64,000 bases of DNA from Clavibacter californiensis (GTDB lineage Bacteria > Actinomycetota > Actinomycetes > Actinomycetales > Microbacteriaceae): NCBI RefSeq assembly GCF_021952865.1, contig NZ_CP040792.1:310001-374000 (forward strand), in the 5' to 3' direction. Position 1 is the stretch's first letter, and the number at the start of each line of letters is the position of its first letter. Shown here piece after piece: positions 14,789-22,231 of the stretch. The notes below the pieces were generated by a model, which was not told the origin of the DNA, searched no databases, and saw only the letters and a program-made list of their open reading frames with translations. The translations under genes and the position numbers were made by a program.

Positions 14789-15394
14789 CTACTCCCCCGA
14801 CTGCCCCGCGTCCGTCACCGTCACGTCGGTGTGCACGAAGTTGAGGTGCGAGCGGGAGGCCGTGGGGCCGCGCTGGCCCTGGTAGCGGGAGGCGTACTCG
14901 CCGGATCCGTAGGGCTTCTCGGCGGGCGACGACAGGCGGAAGAAGCAGAGCTGGCCGATCTTCATCCCGGGCCAGAGCTTGATGGGCAGCGTCGCGACGT
15001 TCGACAGCTCGAGCGTGACATGGCCGGAGAACCCCGGGTCGATGAAGCCGGCGGTGGAGTGCGTGAGGAGGCCGAGGCGGCCGAGCGAGCTCTTGCCCTC
15101 GAGGCGGGCGGCGACGTCGTCGGGCAGCGTGACCAGCTCGAACGTGGATCCGAGGACGAACTCGCCCGGGTGCAGGATGAACGGCTCGCCCGGCTTCGAC
15201 TCGATGAGGCGCGTGAGCTCCGGCTGGTCTTCGGCGGGGTCGATGTAGGGGTACTTGTGGTTGTCGAACAGCCGGAAGAAGCGGTCGATGCGCACGTCGA
15301 TGCTCGCCGGCTGCAGCATCCCGGGGTCGTACGGATCGAGGGCCACTCGTCCGGCGTCGAGCTCGGCGGTGATGTCACGGTCGGAGAGGAGCAC
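14789..15394 (-). CDS. dcd: dCTP deaminase
   Basis: A 201-residue trimeric dUTPase-fold deaminase producing dUTP from dCTP (in some actinobacteria bifunctional to dUMP). Family landmarks: [14 protein letters not shown] at the N-terminus, [14 protein letters not shown] (about 33-46), the nucleotide-binding [10 protein letters not shown] (about 111-120) and [22 protein letters not shown] with the catalytic Glu. C-terminal [11 protein letters not shown] closes the active site. The start is a GTG at 15394, chosen because LLSDRD follows as in the family; no ATG fits in frame nearby. Confidence 0.92.
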
Positions 15395-15475
15395 GGCAGG
15401 AGCATACCGGCGCTGGGTGGCGCCCGGCCGGACTCTTGCTAGGCTGTGGTCTCGACCCGGCTCCTGGCCGGTCGC

Positions 15476-15549
15476 GCGAGTGTAGTTCAATGGTAGAACT
15501 TCAGCTTCCCAAGCTGATAGCGCGGGTTCGATTCCCGTCACTCGCTCCA
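15476..15549 (+). tRNA. tRNA-Gly (anticodon CCC)
   Basis: A 74-base cloverleaf with encoded CCA. The acceptor stem GCGAGTG pairs with CACTCGC, then T and CCA. The anticodon stem TCAGC/GCTGA encloses the loop TTCCCAA, giving anticodon CCC for GGG codons. The T arm GCGGGTTCGATTCCCGT is standard. The AT-richer block begins within a few bases of its 3' end, so this tRNA is the probable integration site of the island. Confidence 0.95.
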
Positions 15550-15744
15550 TTGTATTAATTAGAGTTTTTCTCTACCGCCAATTAGCCTTTATCGCTGGCT
15601 TCAAGCGAACGACATTGGCTGACATCGTATTTTTGTCAATTCCGGTTTCGTGACGAGAAGCGACGTACACCGAATGCCCCTATGATTAAAGTCATTCATC
15701 GGCCCACGTCGCGCTGAACGCGGGGCTGAAGCTGCCGCTCGCCA

Positions 15745-16506
15745 CTAAATCCTGGACACGTCAGCCGGCATACCGTCGCTATCGTGATCTACGTAATAGG
15801 TCGCATCACAACTGAAACAAACATTGTCTCCCACATCCATGACATTGACGTCCCCACAACGTGGATCCGTGCATTGCACATTAAGGCTGCCACACGAATC
15901 GCATAACCCTGCCTGAAGTTCACCGTCACGCCACGGCCCGAGGAAGACTTCTCCAAAGCAGTGCTCGGCGCCACACAAAGAGTAACCAAGTGCCTCAGCA
16001 GCCAACTCGGCCCAGCCGTCCTCGATCACCACCTTGCCCCCCTGAGGCGCCTCTGCCGTGGACCCAAGGTCGCGCAAAACAATTCTAGGAAGCGAGTTAA
16101 GCTCCGCGCGCCTTCGAGCGGCGGGCGTCACACCGTTTAGGGCATAGAGGAGACCTACTCCCGCACCGAGATCCTGCAACTTGCCAACAAATTCGTCTAC
16201 CTTGCCAACATCCACAGGCCGTGCGTAGGCCTTACACTCAACGACAACGCCGATTATCTCTCCCACAATGGGATTTTCCGCAATAACATCGATCTGACGC
16301 ATCGCCCCGGATATTTTACCCATCCGCCTAGCGTCCCACTCAATGTGAGCACGATTGTCTAATTCTCGTAAGCGAGCCTCGACTTCTCGTTCGTACAGTT
16401 TCCAGCGAGATGAGGTTTTTAGGCCCAGGTCAACAGACGAGTCATCGTCAGTCGTAATATTCTCTGAGTTCATGCGCTTATCAGGCCGCCCTTCGTGAAA
16501 TGTCAA
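15745..16506 (-). CDS. Mrr-like PD-(D/E)XK restriction endonuclease with zinc ribbons
   Basis: A 253-residue protein. Residues about 35-150 form a restriction-endonuclease-like core of the Mrr_cat type: an early helix YEREVEARLREL, Asp73 in RQIDVIAENP, then Glu90-x-Lys92 in VVVECKAYARPVDVGKVDEF, the predicted catalytic triad. The C-terminal part has four cysteine pairs (C178/C183 with H182, C202/C205, C212/C217, C230/C233), suggesting two zinc ribbons for nucleic-acid binding. An in-frame ATG at 16473 is an alternative start. It lies 150 bases from the AAA ATPase gene, same strand, in the AT-richer block. Likely a DNA-targeting defence nuclease; target unknown. Confidence 0.8.
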   Translation of the reverse strand: MTFHEGRPDKRMNSENITTDDDSSVDLGLKTSSRWKLYEREVEARLRELDNRAHIEWDARRMGKISGAMRQIDVIAENPIVGEIIGVVVECKAYARPVDVGKVDEFVGKLQDLGAGVGLLYALNGVTPAARRRAELNSLPRIVLRDLGSTAEAPQGGKVVIEDGWAELAAEALGYSLCGAEHCFGEVFLGPWRDGELQAGLCDSCGSLNVQCTDPRCGDVNVMDVGDNVCFSCDATYYVDHDSDGMPADVSRI

Positions 16507-16656
16507 GACGAAACCCTGCCATCATGTCAATGAACAGCCTCCCATATAACCATACACCTCTTAACATTTGCGCCAGTTCGACAACGTAACTACGCGTACG
16601 AGCAATGGGCAGCGCGCGGGTCCAGCCGAGTGCTTGGTGTGAGAACAGCAACTGGT

Positions 16657-18945
16657 CTACGACCCAGCTCCGTGCACCAGATTGAGCACCCGCCGTGCGT
16701 AAGCAAGTACTTCCGCCGGATCGGACACGGCCGTGGCATAATTAGCATTAGTATCGTGGTGAAACTTGCCGGCATATCGATTAAGTACCCTAAGCTCATC
16801 TAGCAAAGGTTGCGCGTATACCAGTGCACTGGGCGGCTGCGCACTTGAAATTTGATCGATTGCTTGCCCAAGCATAAGATCCGCGGAGATCTTGCCAGGA
16901 TAACGCCGATGTAAATATCCTTCTAGCACAAGCCTTAAGGACGTGGCGACTGCTCGGTGATCAGAGGACGCACCTAAAACATATTCATCGACAGTCCGGT
17001 AATTTGTGTAGTACGGCGATTCGCATTCCCTATCAACGTCGAACGGCCCGAAATTCGAGTAGTCATCCTCGGCACGCGCGATCTCGAATGTAGACATGCC
17101 CTCGTCGGCGCGAGACCGCGCCAGGGCCGATTTGAGGTCACGAAGGAATAACGCATCGTGCGCCAAGACAATCAGCTGATTACTCTTCGCTGCAAGCTCT
17201 ACTAGGACCTCAATAGTGTAACTGCGCCGCGACCTGTCGAGGCTGCTTACAGGATCATCAACAACCACTACTTTCGTCGCGAGATCCGGGTCGGCGAGCG
17301 TCGAGGCGACGAAGAAAGCGAATGCCATGGTCCGCTTGTCTCCCTCGCTAAGAGCCGTAGCGAAGGACGGTAACCCGCCGGCTAGTTTGATAGACGCTCC
17401 ACGCAATGTTATGCCGTAGTCCGTTCGCGGCGCACTACCCATGTAGTTGGTGCGGATTTCGTCAATTGCAAAAAATGCACCCAAATTTGCCAAATGACTA
17501 TTAATATTCGCCCTATATGCGGTAAGAGTGCGTGTCATTAGATCAGTGAGCGCAGCCCGCGCTGCTTTTTTCGACTGTTCAGCGTTTTTTAGATCTGCTT
17601 CCGCGAGTTCCAAATCCGCTATCAGCTCCTTAACTGCTGGCGAAAAGCGCTTTTCGATCAGCTCAAGCTTGTCCAGCTCCGCTTGAATCAAGGTGAGATC
17701 TTCGCTCTTCAGCCTCTCTTTAAAGAGGAGGATATCCGCATTGGCGGCCTCGACGAGTTCATTAAATTCGGTGAAGAGCTGAAGGTACTGCCCCCATAGC
17801 CTTTCGACTTCGATAAGATCATCGGCGGCACCCATAACATCTGTTAGTGCAACCTCCTTGCGAGCAAAGAGACGCGATAATATCTCCGCAGCAGATTCCA
17901 AGGAAGCGACTGCCAGCTCGTCACGATCGTCCCCGGGTGACGAGAGCTGCACATAAGGCTTCCACTGCTCTATGAGGGCACTGTTGCCATCCCGGACGCT
18001 TCTTAGGGTTTCATACTCCGCACCCCGCCCGAGGCGAGCTACTAGCGCGATAGCCGCGTCAACGTCCTGGCGCAACTTACGAAAGTCCTCATTGAAGTGG
18101 CTTTTATACATCTTAATGAGGTCGACGCCCTCTGTCGATTGGCCACAGTATGGGCATAGAGATGCATTGTCGTACTGTTGTCCATCACTTAGCCAACGGG
18201 AAAGTGAGGCATCGCCAACCACTGCAACGTGGGCTTGTACTGCTACTTCCGCATCCGCGTGTATATCTTCCAATGACCGATCGAGCAGGTCGAAGAATGT
18301 AGTCATGTCGACACTGGGCAACCCTACGGGTGAAAGCACCTTTTGCTGCTGAAGAAGCTCTACTCGGCCGGCTGCGCGAAGACGCTCTGTTGTTAGCGCT
18401 TTCTGAGCCTCCAAATCCTCCACAGGACGCAGGCGCCGGAACACGACAACCTTGGTTCCTGCTGCATGCACCTGTAGCTGAGACGTCAGGGCTTTAATGC
18501 GGCTCGACGCCGCTTGCTGGGCTGTGGTTGATGCTTCCTCGGCCGAGCGTGCTTGCACAGCAGAGTCACCTAGAGCAAAATCGAGTAAGTTCTTCCGGTG
18601 GTCCGCAGTAACTTCAGCACCTGAGTGCACATTCGATGAGACGAACTCCGAATCGTACACCAGCACTTCGGGGCGCTTCTCGGTCCAAGCTCCGTGCTCA
18701 TACGTCACGGGATGGCCGCTGTCGAATTGAAGAGCCACCATGGGGCTATTCGTCGCGTCGACAGTCACTCGCTCTTCGATATCACGCCCACCGCCTTTGG
18801 CTAGCGATCGCAATATACTCGCAAGGGTCGACTTTCCCCGACCGTTTCCGGCATAAATTAATGTGCGCTTCTCCAGCTTCGTGCTGCCGCCTCGTGCATC
18901 ATGAAGTAGTCCGATACCTTGAATCTTTACAATGCGCTTTAGCAT
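16657..18945 (-). CDS. AAA_13/RloC-PrrC-like ATPase with CPYC motif and HEPN-like R-x5-H motif
   Basis: A 762-residue ABC/SMC-type ATPase. Walker A is GNGRGKST (33-40), the ABC-like signature LSEGDKR (532-538), Walker B VVVVDDPVSSLD (559-570) and a switch His at 596 in LAHDALFL. Between the halves lie charged helices with coiled-coil character and a CPYCG at 264-268, at a place where RloC has its zinc hook. The C-terminal helical region (about 640-762) contains R723-YAGKF-H729, fitting the R-x4-6-H motif of HEPN ribonucleases and the PrrC/RloC style of ATPase-controlled tRNA anticodon cleavage. Such proteins act in phage defence. The nuclease assignment is inference: similar R...HH sequences are frequent in AAA_13 proteins of unproved activity. 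Confidence 0.8.
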   Translation of the reverse strand: MLKRIVKIQGIGLLHDARGGSTKLEKRTLIYAGNGRGKSTLASILRSLAKGGGRDIEERVTVDATNSPMVALQFDSGHPVTYEHGAWTEKRPEVLVYDSEFVSSNVHSGAEVTADHRKNLLDFALGDSAVQARSAEEASTTAQQAASSRIKALTSQLQVHAAGTKVVVFRRLRPVEDLEAQKALTTERLRAAGRVELLQQQKVLSPVGLPSVDMTTFFDLLDRSLEDIHADAEVAVQAHVAVVGDASLSRWLSDGQQYDNASLCPYCGQSTEGVDLIKMYKSHFNEDFRKLRQDVDAAIALVARLGRGAEYETLRSVRDGNSALIEQWKPYVQLSSPGDDRDELAVASLESAAEILSRLFARKEVALTDVMGAADDLIEVERLWGQYLQLFTEFNELVEAANADILLFKERLKSEDLTLIQAELDKLELIEKRFSPAVKELIADLELAEADLKNAEQSKKAARAALTDLMTRTLTAYRANINSHLANLGAFFAIDEIRTNYMGSAPRTDYGITLRGASIKLAGGLPSFATALSEGDKRTMAFAFFVASTLADPDLATKVVVVDDPVSSLDRSRRSYTIEVLVELAAKSNQLIVLAHDALFLRDLKSALARSRADEGMSTFEIARAEDDYSNFGPFDVDRECESPYYTNYRTVDEYVLGASSDHRAVATSLRLVLEGYLHRRYPGKISADLMLGQAIDQISSAQPPSALVYAQPLLDELRVLNRYAGKFHHDTNANYATAVSDPAEVLAYARRVLNLVHGAGS

Positions 18946-19033
18946 GTTTGCACCTCTAGCTTATTAGAGTGACGGCTTGTTAGGCGTACGTTACGCGTTG
19001 TAGCGCAGTACGGCCACCCCTACTTCGGGGCGC

Positions 19034-19276
19034 CTAAATCCTGATCGCATCAAACGGATTCAAGACAAAAGGGGGCATATCAGCGCAAGCCCAATCAACA
19101 TCACGCGGTGCTCCTTTCGGCGGTTCCAAAGTAGTAAGCGCAATTTTATCCCAGGCTGCACCGGGCGTGACGGAAGTGTCGAAGAATATACGTTCTTCCC
19201 GGTGACCTCGACAAGCGCAATAGTATTGCCGCAGTAACCCGAGTTGGATTTGCAGAATACTCAGGCTGCTCCGCAT
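19034..19276 (-). CDS. Small hypothetical protein in the AT-richer block
   Basis: An 80-codon frame, 88 bases upstream of the ATPase gene on the same strand. The product has a CACRGHREER segment (two Cys and one His) but no domain I recognise and no membrane helix. Its composition matches the island. It could be a real small accessory gene of the ATPase/nuclease pair or a chance frame or remnant. Confidence 0.35.
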   Translation of the reverse strand: MRSSLSILQIQLGLLRQYYCACRGHREERIFFDTSVTPGAAWDKIALTTLEPPKGAPRDVDWACADMPPFVLNPFDAIRI

Positions 19277-19370
19277 GCTGGGACGGTGAGGTGGGGACTA
19301 GTCATGGGAGGACGAAGCAAGCCCATTCGGGACACGCCGTCGCTAGTAGCGGAAGTTGACCGATGGCCGC

Positions 19371-20099
19371 CTAGCGGATCGCGCTGCTCACCTCCGCCAG
19401 CAACGACGCCATCCCCGCCTCCGCCGTCGCCGCATCCCCATCCCGGATCGCGAAAGCCACCTGCTCGTGGGTGTCCAGCGCATGCGGACGCGGCGTCCGC
19501 GGCATCAGGCCCTGGTGCGTGCGACCGCTGAGGACCTCCGTGATCACCTCGCGGAGGGCGCAGAACATGTCGTTGCCGCTGGCCTCGAGGATCAGGTGGT
19601 GGAACTCGATGTCCACCGCGAGGAAGTCGACGAGGGCGCCGGCCTCGCCGAGGCGGCGGAGATCCACCGCGAGTTCGGCGATGCGCGTGCGCTGGGCAGC
19701 AGTGGCATTGCGCGCGGCGAGTGACGCCGCGACCGGCTCGACCGCGCGGCGCAGCTGGGTGAGGGAGCGGAACTGGTCCGAGCGGCCGGGGCCGGTGAGG
19801 CGCCACCGGATGATGCGCGGGTCGTAGACGTTCCATCGATCCGGGCCCTGCACCACGAGGCCCACGCGGCGCTTGGGCACGATCAGCGCCATCGCCTCGA
19901 GCACGCGCACGCAGTCGCGCACCACCGTGCGGGAGACGCCGAAGCGCTGCTGGAGGTCCTCGATGGTGAGGCGGGTTCCTTCGGCGAGACGGCCGTCGAC
20001 GATGTCGCGACCGAGCTCCTCGATGATCCGCGTCGCCAGCACCGTGGCGGCGGGGACCGCGGCGGCGGGTGCCGAGGGTGGGACTGACCGCGTCGTCAT
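19371..20099 (-). CDS. gntR: GntR/FadR-type regulator of gluconate genes
   Basis: A 242-residue regulator: N-terminal winged helix (LGRDIVDGRLAEGTRLTIEDLQQRFGVSRTVVRDCVRVLEAMALI, about residues 29-73) and a C-terminal all-helical FCD ligand domain with the metal-binding Asp/His set, including DIEFHHLILEASGN (about 163-176). Divergent from gntK-gntP, so it is most likely their gluconate-responsive repressor. A palindrome fitting its operator lies at 20182-20200. Confidence 0.9.
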   Translation of the reverse strand: MTTRSVPPSAPAAAVPAATVLATRIIEELGRDIVDGRLAEGTRLTIEDLQQRFGVSRTVVRDCVRVLEAMALIVPKRRVGLVVQGPDRWNVYDPRIIRWRLTGPGRSDQFRSLTQLRRAVEPVAASLAARNATAAQRTRIAELAVDLRRLGEAGALVDFLAVDIEFHHLILEASGNDMFCALREVITEVLSGRTHQGLMPRTPRPHALDTHEQVAFAIRDGDAATAEAGMASLLAEVSSAIR

Positions 20100-20830: not shown

Positions 20831-22231
20831 ATGACCATCGAAGACTGGACGCAGACCCTCACCGCGGGTCCGCTCCTCCTGATCGCGGCCGGCGCCATCG
20901 CCGTGCTGCTGCTCCTGATCATCACGTTCCGCGTCCACGCGTTCGTGGCGCTGATCCTCGTGAGCCTCCTCACGGCGTTCGCCACCGGGATCCCGACCTC
21001 GCAGATCGTGACCGTGCTCGTCGGCAGCTTCGGCTCCACGCTCGGCACCGTCGCTCTGCTCGTGGGACTCGGCGCGATGCTCGGGCGCCTGGTCGAGACC
21101 AGCGGCGGCGCGAAGACGTTGGCCGACACCCTGATCCGGATCTTCGGCGAGAAGCGCGCCCCGTTCGCGCTCGGGGTCGCGTCGCTGATCTTCGGCTTCC
21201 CGATCTTCTTCGACGCCGGGCTCGTCGTGATGCTGCCCATCGTGTTCTCGGTGGCCCGTCGCCTCGGTGGCGGCGTGCTCCGCTACGGCCTCCCCGCGGC
21301 CGGCGCCTTCTCGGTCATGCACATCTTCGTGCCGCCGCACCCCGGTCCCGTCGCGGCCAGCGAGTTCTTCGGCGCGAACGTCGGCATCGTGATCATCGTC
21401 GGCCTCGTCGCCGCGATCCCCACCTGGTACGTCACCGCCTACCTCTACGGGCTCTGGGTCGGCAAGAAGTTCGTGCTGCCGATCCCGTCGCTCATGGGCG
21501 AGGCCGACGCGCACGCCGAGTCGAACCCGCCGAGGTTCGGCACCGTCGTCGCCGTGCTGCTGCTCCCGCTCCTCCTCATCTTCATGAACACCGGCCTCAA
21601 CGCGGCCTCGACCGACGGGATCCTGCCCGAGGGCACGAGCGACCAGGCCTGGTACCAGGTGCTCCGCACCATCGGCGAGACGCCCGTCGCGCTCCTCATC
21701 GCGCTGCTGTTCGCGGCGTTCGTGCTCGGCCGTCGCCGGGGGATCGACAAGACCGCGCTCGAGAAGACGCTCGAGTCGGCGCTCGGCCCGGTCTGCTCGG
21801 TGATCCTCATCACCGGCGCCGGCGGCATGTTCGGCGGCGTCCTCCGCACCAGCGGCATCGGCGACGCCCTCGCCGACGTGCTGGGCGACCTCGGCATCCC
21901 GATCATCCTGGCCGGGTTCCTCATCGCCGCGATCCTCCGCATCGCGCAAGGTTCCGCGACCGTCGCGCTCACCACAGCCGCGGGCCTCGTCTCCCCGGCG
22001 ATCCTCGCGGGCGACTACAACGCCTTCCAAGTCGCGGCGCTCGTCGTCGCGGTGGCCGGTGGATCCGTGGTCGCTAGCCACGTGAACGACTCCGGCTTCT
22101 GGCTCGTCGGCCGCTTCTTCGAGATGGACGTGAAGACGACCCTCAAGACGTGGACCGTGATGGAGACCACCATCGGCGTGATGGGCTTCGCGATCGCGAC
22201 GGCGGTGTTCGGGGTGGCGTCGCTGGTGTGA
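20831..22231 (+). CDS. gntP: Gluconate:H+ symporter GntP family
   Basis: A 466-residue permease with about 12-14 hydrophobic segments and the GntP-family features FGFPIFFDAGLVVMLPI (about residues 124-140) and HIFVPPHPGPVAASEFFGANVG (about 163-184). It imports gluconate for the kinase encoded upstream. Both genes are probably expressed from the promoter carrying the GntR palindrome. Full length for the family; ATG preceded by GGAGA. Confidence 0.93.
   Translation: MTIEDWTQTLTAGPLLLIAAGAIAVLLLLIITFRVHAFVALILVSLLTAFATGIPTSQIVTVLVGSFGSTLGTVALLVGLGAMLGRLVETSGGAKTLADTLIRIFGEKRAPFALGVASLIFGFPIFFDAGLVVMLPIVFSVARRLGGGVLRYGLPAAGAFSVMHIFVPPHPGPVAASEFFGANVGIVIIVGLVAAIPTWYVTAYLYGLWVGKKFVLPIPSLMGEADAHAESNPPRFGTVVAVLLLPLLLIFMNTGLNAASTDGILPEGTSDQAWYQVLRTIGETPVALLIALLFAAFVLGRRRGIDKTALEKTLESALGPVCSVILITGAGGMFGGVLRTSGIGDALADVLGDLGIPIILAGFLIAAILRIAQGSATVALTTAAGLVSPAILAGDYNAFQVAALVVAVAGGSVVASHVNDSGFWLVGRFFEMDVKTTLKTWTVMETTIGVMGFAIATAVFGVASLV

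What the first reader, a model, noticed from the sequence alone, without database searches (positions are those of the whole stretch)
15476..19300. tRNA-Gly-linked island carrying a nuclease pair: possible undescribed defence system
Seen: directly after tRNA-Gly(CCC) the base composition falls to near half G+C, with an Mrr-like PD-(D/E)XK nuclease gene, an AAA_13/RloC-like ATPase gene and one small ORF on the same strand. Known: RloC and PrrC are ATPase-linked tRNA anticodon nucleases in phage defence, and PrrC is paired with a restriction system. Inference: here a restriction-type nuclease and an RNase-type ATPase may form one two-layer system (DNA cleavage plus tRNA damage as back-up), without a methylase.
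Basis: partly seen in the sequence, partly recalled or inferred. Interest (0 to 1): 0.85.

Follow-up and report, generated by a model that had tools for sequence, protein, structure and literature searches.

The report
Clavibacter tRNA-Gly defence hotspot cargo
Two probable anti-virus genes, a DNA-cutting enzyme and a likely tRNA-cutting one, sit in a chromosome slot beside a glycine tRNA gene that sampled Clavibacter genomes fill with varied, mostly defence-like genes; the slot looks real and worth mining, but the two genes look like neighbours rather than one new system.

Summary
After tRNA-Gly(CCC) (15476-15549) lie 3.8 kb at about 54% G+C, against about 72% around, with an Mrr-like nuclease gene, an AAA_13 ATPase gene and an 80-aa ORF, all on the minus strand.

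The ATPase has an RloC-type layout (Rad50-like ATPase, CxxC zinc hook, R-x3-E...H), invariant in 12 of 12 aligned sequences; the nuclease keeps D...ExK. But the pair is not conserved: another Clavibacter genome carries the ATPase (51% identical) alone in the same slot, and no nuclease relative was found near other AAA_13 loci examined, nor the reverse.

What is real is the site. In 18 of 18 Clavibacter genomes a low-G+C cargo starts right after this tRNA. In 16 it ends at or near the gntR stop codon; in 2 gntR is missing. Cargoes mostly differ, and 15 of 16 scanned match known or candidate defence models. Twenty genomes of 17 other genera with the same dcd-tRNA order show no comparable drop. 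I found no integrase or flanking repeat; exchange through the flanks is inferred.

Verdict: a new core defence hotspot of a known kind, holding a solitary Mrr-like DNase and a probable RloC-like RNase.

The parts
14789..15550 (-). left flank: dcd (dCTP deaminase) ORF; the true start is probably internal, since the ORF's first part is antisense to the tRNA
   Evidence: Pfam DCD 3.4e-45 over aa 55-205; region 14900-15560 found at 93-98% identity in the other 17 genomes of the genus
15476..15549 (+). tRNA-Gly(CCC), CCA encoded; left border of the hotspot
   Evidence: ARAGORN; 74 of 74 bases identical in 17 of 18 genomes, 73 of 74 in G012; sequences diverge directly after it
15550..19370 (.). hotspot interval (cargo), 3821 bp, about 53.7% G+C
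   Evidence: low-G+C cargo at this place in 18 of 18 genomes of the genus
15745..16506 (-). Mrr-like PD-(D/E)XK nuclease with C-terminal Cys-rich (zinc-ribbon-like) region, 253 aa from TTG; an ATG 11 codons later is an alternative start
   Evidence: Pfam Mrr_cat 4.5e-9; D73, E90, K92 and 8 Cys invariant in 4 of 4 aligned sequences, window included
16231..16290 (-). catalytic stretch of the nuclease, D73 to K92 (D...E-x-K)
   Evidence: positions computed from residue numbers
16657..18945 (-). AAA_13 / RloC-like ABC ATPase with C-terminal RNase-type motif, 762 aa
   Evidence: Pfam AAA_13 1.7e-38, PADLOC PDC-S06 4.4e-64; motif positions; 12-sequence alignment
18145..18156 (-). CxxC zinc-hook motif, C264-C267
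   Evidence: invariant in 12 of 12 and 13 of 13 aligned sequences, window included in both
16756..16935 (-). R671, E675 and H729/H730: residues matching the RloC/PrrC catalytic triad pattern
   Evidence: R671, E675, H729, H730 invariant in 12 of 12; in the 13 sequences of A4 R671, E675 and H730 are invariant and H729 nearly so; pattern from PMC2610378
19034..19276 (-). 80-aa ORF of unknown status, possibly a fragment
   Evidence: no match in Pfam, PADLOC or NCBIfam or among plasmids; no relative in the loci tested
19371..20099 (-). right flank: gntR (FCD-type GntR regulator); divergence begins at or within about 12 bp of its stop codon
   Evidence: Pfam FCD 3.7e-21, GntR 4.3e-12; right-border comparison

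Best explanation
The interval between tRNA-Gly(CCC) and gntR is a core defence hotspot of the genus Clavibacter: one slot between conserved genes, filled in all 18 genomes sampled, with varied and mostly defence-like cargo. In this genome the slot holds two stand-alone modules. The first is an Mrr-like type IV DNase, which needs no methylase because it would cut DNA carrying foreign modifications (inferred from the family). The second is an RloC-like ATPase, probably a single-gene abortive defence: a Rad50-like ATPase with a zinc hook senses DNA ends and releases a C-terminal RNase that disables tRNA (inferred from RloC). Cargo is probably swapped by homologous recombination through the conserved flanks, since no integrase or flanking repeat was found and partial gntR duplications mark two sites. 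Shown: the site, its occupancy in the sample, its borders and the conserved motifs. Inferred: DNA target, tRNA cleavage, DNA-end sensing, and exchange by recombination.
For: Occupancy: dcd-tRNA-Gly is in 18 of 18 genomes at 93-100% identity, and the 500 bp counted from the tRNA's first base have G+C 0.48-0.58 in all 18. gntR borders the slot in 16 of 18; in G002 and G007 homology resumes at the next ORF but one, near 20.8 kb. Defence-like cargo: 22 of 30 chosen cargo proteins match PADLOC models at E<=1e-5 against 3 of 20 control genes of the window; 15 of 16 scanned intervals have at least one match. Independent gains: cargo of the same type is only 65-72% identical in DNA over the aligned parts (G003/G013, G009/G014, G000/G015) while the left flanks are 96-97% identical. 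Genus-specific: 20 of 20 examined genomes of 17 other genera with the same dcd-tRNA order lack a comparable G+C drop. Modularity: ATPase alone in G015 at the same tRNA; single low-G+C AAA_13 genes in other contexts in L082 and L092. RloC layout: Walker A, C264/C267, SxGD, DDP, H596, R671, E675, H729 and H730 invariant in the window protein and 11 relatives at 28-57% identity. Scars: gntR 3'-tail copies of 334 bp (G001) and 388 bp (G004).
Against: No function was measured. The HEPN motif Rx4-6H, listed as conserved in the PrrC/RloC family (PMC3710099), is present in the window protein (R723) but that arginine is not conserved among relatives. Which of H729/H730 is the triad histidine is open; only H730 is invariant in the wider set. 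No tested RloC sequence was compared, and PADLOC's PrrC model matched only the ATPase part (557-611, E 1.4e-5). The defence counts lean on generic ATPases and on candidate models, and I chose the 30 proteins. Some cargo has no match (G001, 477 aa). One genome per species was held, so turnover within species was not seen. Exchange by recombination rests on two scars and on not finding integrases in the proteins scanned. G092 (0.55 against a flank of 0.64) and G076 show a mild local dip outside the genus. Restriction-type neighbours at 2 of 7 plasmid AAA_13 loci speak a little against full independence from restriction.
Confidence: 0.7

Rival explanations
1. The two genes are one functional relay: the Mrr-like DNase cuts invading DNA, and the resulting breaks (or failure of restriction) switch on the RloC-like tRNase as a back-up.
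For: Same strand, 150 bp apart, near-identical codon-position G+C (0.64/0.44/0.55 and 0.64/0.42/0.55). [quoted passage not shown] Two of 7 plasmid AAA_13 loci looked at have other restriction-type genes next door: a DUF262/HNH protein and an S-subunit, GIY-YIG and helicase row.
Against: Both hits only in this genome in the family and order draws; the ATPase stands alone in G015; no promoter or terminator signal above shuffles to support or reject an operon.
Confidence: 0.12
2. The AAA_13 gene is a single-gene defence ATPase of the PDC-S06 kind whose C-terminal domain does something other than cleave tRNA (another RNA, or a toxin that is not a nuclease).
For: The HEPN Rx4-6H arginine is not conserved among the relatives; the closest library model is a candidate without known function; the His motif is FHH instead of the SH-ending motif of the G008 and G004 AAA_13 proteins.
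Against: R-x3-E and a downstream His are invariant as in RloC/PrrC; hhalign places the window's R-x3-E on the same motif of the G008 and G004 AAA_13 proteins, though neither alignment reaches the His.
Confidence: 0.2
3. The interval is the decayed remnant of an integrative element that once inserted at the tRNA 3' end by a site-specific integrase.
For: tRNA 3' ends are classic integration sites (recalled); the left border falls exactly at the tRNA end in 18 of 18.
Against: No exact repeat of the tRNA end longer than 11 bp in the stretches tested, and the forward one in the window lies inside the AAA_13 gene; no integrase or transposase family among the 33 interval proteins scanned; smaller and unchosen ORFs were not scanned.
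Confidence: 0.1

Closest known systems
Core defence hotspots cDHS1 and cDHS2 of Pseudomonas aeruginosa (PMC10250203; abstract part and passages seen)
   Same: Defence systems of many kinds between fixed core genes, lower G+C than the host (stated for cDHS1), 29% of cDHS1 and 47% of cDHS2 sites without detectable mobile gene; flank recombination is proposed there too. cDHS2 was located with the tmRNA gene as marker and has a median of 6 kb, close to the 2-8 kb here.
   Different: Other genus and locus; here beside a tRNA-Gly, and filled in 18 of 18 genomes of a one-per-species sample.
RloC anticodon nuclease (PMC2610378; abstract part and passages seen)
   Same: ABC ATPase with CxxC zinc hook and a C-terminal R-x3-E...H motif, rarely linked to a type I R-M system.
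   Different: E to H spacing is 54 or 55 here against 41 in G. kaustophilus RloC; no tested RloC sequence was aligned; HEPN Rx4-6H arginine not conserved in the close family.
PrrC with the PrrI type I R-M system (PMC3710099; passages seen)
   Same: ATPase-coupled tRNase near a DNA restriction function.
   Different: No hsd or methylase gene in the interval; the neighbour is a solitary Mrr-like DNase that is not conserved beside the ATPase.
Mrr-type type IV restriction enzymes (Pfam Mrr_cat)
   Same: Mrr_cat domain with D...ExK, no methylase next door.
   Different: Carries an 8-Cys C-terminal region; no DNA specificity is known.
PADLOC candidate PDC-S06
   Same: Best library match of the ATPase (4.4e-64, aa 1-703).
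   Different: PDC-S06 is itself a candidate; I found no function for it in the search listing.

Membership tests
RloC | ABC ATPase motifs (Walker A, signature, Walker B, linchpin His) | tested here: met
   N34-K38, S533/G535/D536, D563-P565 and H596 invariant in 12 of 12 aligned sequences
RloC | CxxC zinc hook between coiled-coil arms | tested here: met
   C264 and C267 invariant in 12 of 12 and 13 of 13; coiled coils were not predicted
RloC | ACNase triad R-x3-E ... H | tested here: met
   R671, E675, H729, H730 invariant in 12 of 12; R671, E675, H730 invariant and H729 nearly so in 13; by pattern only, no tested RloC sequence aligned
RloC | HEPN motif Rx4-6H conserved | tested here: not met
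   R723 in the window protein, not among the invariant or nearly invariant columns of the relatives
RloC | Cleaves tRNA anticodon loops, responds to DNA breaks or Zn | not testable with these tools
   needs an assay
Mrr-type restriction enzyme | Mrr_cat PD-(D/E)XK core with intact catalytic residues | tested here: met
   Mrr_cat 36.9 bits against a cut-off of 21; D73, E90, K92 invariant in 4 of 4
Mrr-type restriction enzyme | Cuts modified DNA, no cognate methylase | tested here: inconclusive
   no methylase match in the interval; the rest of the genome was not searched for one; activity not testable
Two-gene defence system | The two genes recur together | tested here: not met
   only G000 in both hit lists of the family draw and the order draw; 0 of 12 other AAA_13 loci with the nuclease
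Core defence hotspot | Fixed core flanks with variable, defence-rich cargo | tested here: met
   left flank 18 of 18, gntR flank 16 of 18; 15 of 16 scanned intervals match PADLOC at E<=1e-5
tRNA-site integrative element | Integrase and att repeats | tested here: not met
   no integrase family in 33 interval proteins scanned; no exact tRNA-end repeat over 11 bp

The most novel reading that the evidence does not exclude
The two genes form a relay in which double-strand breaks made by the Mrr-like DNase are the signal that unleashes the RloC-like tRNase. The slot would then be a natural assembly point where solitary modules of different layers are put together into new combined defences and tested by selection in each Clavibacter species.
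Probability: 0.1. Interest if true: 0.65.

Novelty: new member of a known kind. Interest (0 to 1): 0.45.

Why it matters
A short slot filled with varied, mostly defence-like cargo in all 18 sampled species of one genus is a compact place to look for new anti-phage systems: some cargo has no library match, and one set recurs on distant plasmids. It also offers a natural experiment on how defence genes are swapped where no integrase is seen, and it explains why the nuclease pair looked special when read alone.

Tried and rejected
Two-gene system: rejected as a conserved unit by co-occurrence (see evidence). Element with integrase and att sites: no exact repeat beyond 11 bp, no integrase family in the proteins scanned. 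Hotspot across the family: the 20 genomes of 17 other genera examined show no comparable G+C drop; they were chosen because the match ran to or near the tRNA end, so genomes in which tRNA and dcd lie apart were not examined. Phage origin: no match of the ATPase in 50,697 phage records; two scans of viral contigs gave no nuclease relative, while the ATPase gave 42 viral-collection loci, 13 of them matched over 730 or more residues. Solved structures: only Rad50- and ABC-type chains, plus unrelated ones, at weak E-values for the ATPase, and one weak unrelated chain for the nuclease. Operon signals: promoter and terminator counts equal to shuffles. The genome-collection scan with A1 confirmed a single locus, L082. 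The interval as DNA has no match among plasmids. Separate origin of the two genes cannot be told from composition.

One search was partly wrong: its script took a protein row for the window, so its tRNA positions and profiles for the 20 outside genomes are void; it was redone, and nothing is used.
Full report
What is in the sequence. tRNA-Gly(CCC) lies at 15476-15549 on the plus strand. The following 3.8 kb fall to about 53.7% G+C (measured to 19331); the lowest 1-kb window that does not touch this stretch is 65.5%. On the minus strand lie an Mrr-like nuclease (15745-16506), an AAA_13 ATPase (16657-18945) and an 80-aa ORF without any match (19034-19276). The flanks are dcd on the left and gntR on the right.

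The site. The dcd-tRNA-Gly flank is in 18 of 18 at 93-100% identity. In all 18 the 500 bp counted from the tRNA's first base have G+C 0.48-0.58, and the sequences diverge directly after the tRNA. gntR is the right border in 16 of 18, with divergence starting at or within about 12 bp of its stop codon. In G002 and G007 it is missing and homology resumes near window position 20.8 kb, at the start of the ORF 20831-22231 (a gluconate-type permease by recall, not by a call). Intervals of the 16 run from 1,975 to 8,307 bp; those of G002 and G007 are about 3.2 and 4.1 kb.

The cargoes. I chose 30 proteins from the ORFs of 100 aa or more listed (67 rows, many of them overlapping the flanking genes) and scanned them with Pfam and PADLOC. 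G013 and G017 were not scanned, and G014 only for its first gene, because they resemble G003, G001 and G009; a few further ORFs inside the slots were left out too. Contents: G000 Mrr + AAA_13; G001 and G017 a 477-aa protein, the G001 copy without match; G002 and G005 OLD-like ATPase with Toprim; G003 and G013 a thymidylate-synthase-like, aGPT-PPlase/ADDT, ImmA/IrrE and 107-aa set; G004 AAA_13 and a 316-aa protein; G006 DUF4238, a type II-like methylase, caspase-like and AIPR; G007 KAP ATPase; G008 HEC-07 + AAA_13; G009 and G014 Septu-like genes; G010 Beta protein + cll; G011 a PLD-like protein (below Pfam's cut-off) with two methylases; G012 YobI/Tmn-like; G015 AAA_13 alone; G016 PDC-S46. PADLOC at E<=1e-5 matched 22 of 30 cargo proteins, against 3 of 20 control genes from the same window. 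The comparison is rough: the cargo was chosen, PADLOC includes candidate models and methylases, and generic ATPases match on both sides. Of 16 intervals with scanned proteins, 15 have at least one such match; G001 has none. In the window itself the ATPase matches, while the nuclease falls just short (PDC-S02, 1.9e-5).

Independent gain and exchange. Septu in G009 and G014 is 67% and 72% identical in its two aligned DNA pieces, the G003/G013 set 65% over 969 bp, and the AAA_13 genes of G000 and G015 69% over 347 bp, while the left flanks of these pairs are 96-97% identical. The same kinds of system thus probably arrived more than once at the same place. G001 and G017, in contrast, share one cargo at 96%. 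G001 and G004 carry an extra copy of the gntR 3' end (334 and 388 bp) between two pieces of cargo, which looks like a recombination scar. No integrase or transposase family was seen in the 33 interval proteins scanned, and no exact tRNA-end repeat beyond 11 bp. Recombination through the flanks is my inference; the authors of the P. aeruginosa study suggest the same for theirs (PMC10250203, passages).

Control outside the genus. The dcd-tRNA query matched 117 of 120 family genomes; in many only the dcd part matched, and in some the tRNA lies elsewhere, from a few hundred bases to tens of kb away. I took 20 genomes of 17 other genera in which the match reached, or nearly reached, the tRNA end. 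None of the 20 has a drop like that of Clavibacter; G092 (0.55 in the first 500 bp, flank 0.64) and G076 have a mild local dip. gntR was not found in the roughly 8.4 kb after the tRNA in any of the 20. The slot therefore looks specific to Clavibacter within this sample.

Do the two genes belong together? Nuclease: in the 398-genome family draw 8 match at E<=1e-3, of which 4, the window's own included, are strong; 2 of 396 order genomes at E<=1e-15; 3 of 227 phylum genomes with the 4-sequence alignment at E<=1e-12, two of them partial. ATPase: 3 of 18 in the genus at E<=1e-3 (G000, G015 and, weakly, G004), 3 of 398 in the family draw at E<=1e-30, 2 of 396 in the order draw. Only the window's own genome is in both lists of a draw. 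In the genus the nuclease was sought in all 18 slots and, genome-wide, only in the genus members of the family draw. G015 has the ATPase as the only large ORF of its slot. Eleven other AAA_13 loci have no relative of the nuclease within the fetched 4-20 kb; seven of these are named plasmids, out of 36 plasmid records with a match. Nor do 42 loci from the viral collection. Seven loci with nuclease relatives, 3 of them strong, have no AAA_13 relative. Neighbours of AAA_13 differ from place to place: a recombinase gene, plasmid replication genes, an integrase and a TIR protein, a DUF262/HNH protein, a row of S subunit, GIY-YIG and helicase genes, and HEC-07 in G008. The two restriction-type cases fit the known loose tie of RloC to restriction, but not this pair. 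The promoter and terminator scan says nothing either way.

The ATPase. In the window protein and 11 relatives (28-57% identity) the Walker A lysine, C264 and C267 of the CxxC motif, the SxGD signature, the DDP Walker B, H596, R671, E675, H729 and H730 are invariant. In a second alignment of 13 with more distant members C264, C267, R671, E675 and H730 stay invariant and H729 nearly so. PMC2610378 (passages) gives R692, E696 and H737 as the triad of G. kaustophilus RloC and the CxxC zinc hook as a regulator; the R-x3-E spacing is the same here, E to H is 54 or 55 instead of 41. Profile comparison puts R-x3-E on the corresponding motif of the G008 and G004 AAA_13 proteins but does not reach the His. 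Against full membership: the HEPN arginine of Rx4-6H is not conserved in the relatives, and PADLOC's PrrC model matches only the ATPase part. I call it RloC-like, not RloC.

The nuclease. Mrr_cat is matched above its cut-off; D73, E90 and K92 and eight cysteines in the C-terminal part are invariant in the 4 sequences aligned. A DNase directed at modified foreign DNA, without need of a methylase, is the simplest reading and follows from the family, not from a test.

Literature. The listings of searches for Clavibacter with tRNA-Gly, island and hotspot terms (14 papers) and for Clavibacter with defence systems and phage (8 papers) show no title or abstract start that describes this site. One paper on Clavibacter prophages and defences (PMC11856565) was searched for six terms: 'hotspot', 'tRNA', 'defense island', 'RloC' and 'Septu' do not occur in its main text. 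A search for Mrr with RloC terms gave 6 listings, none of them about such a pair by title. Subscription papers, preprints and supplements were not searched.

Verdict. A real core defence hotspot that I did not find described in these searches, a known kind of thing in a new place, with two ordinary-looking modules in this genome. Interest 0.45: the slot and its unmatched cargo are worth mining; the proposed two-layer system is unlikely.

Noticed in passing
L056:1538-4823, L066, L089:765-3880, L188, L189, L190, L191: A thymidylate-synthase-like gene, an aGPT-PPlase/ADDT-like gene and a convergent ImmA/IrrE gene recur in 7 of 7 loci looked at (two Clavibacter slots; plasmids of Rhizobium, Arthrobacter, Roseomonas, Pantoea, Agrobacterium, the last four named partly from annotation), in some with a small ORF behind the ImmA/IrrE gene. 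Five of the 8 plasmid records with the second gene were looked at; no phage record matched. It may be an undescribed DNA-base-modification or defence system.
   Followed up: partly
L089:765-7295: On a Rhizobium plasmid that set stands beside a relative of the window's AAA_13 gene, with one hypothetical gene between.
   Followed up: no
L054:1420-2853 and L070:1420-2853: 477-aa slot protein of two Clavibacter genomes (98% identical); the L054 copy, the only one scanned, has no Pfam match at E<=0.01 and no PADLOC match at E<=1e-5; a candidate unknown defence gene.
   Followed up: partly
L054 and L057: Extra copies of the gntR 3' end (334 and 388 bp) inside the slot of G001 and G004, probable recombination scars.
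   Followed up: partly
L055 and L060: G002 and G007 lack gntR at the slot; homology to the window resumes near 20.8 kb, at the next-but-one gene.
   Followed up: no
L059:2688-6917: Slot of G006 carries a type II-like methylase, a caspase-like protein and an AIPR/AbiU-like protein in a row.
   Followed up: no
L065: In G012 the last base of the tRNA-Gly gene differs, so the encoded CCA end is altered exactly at the slot border.
   Followed up: no
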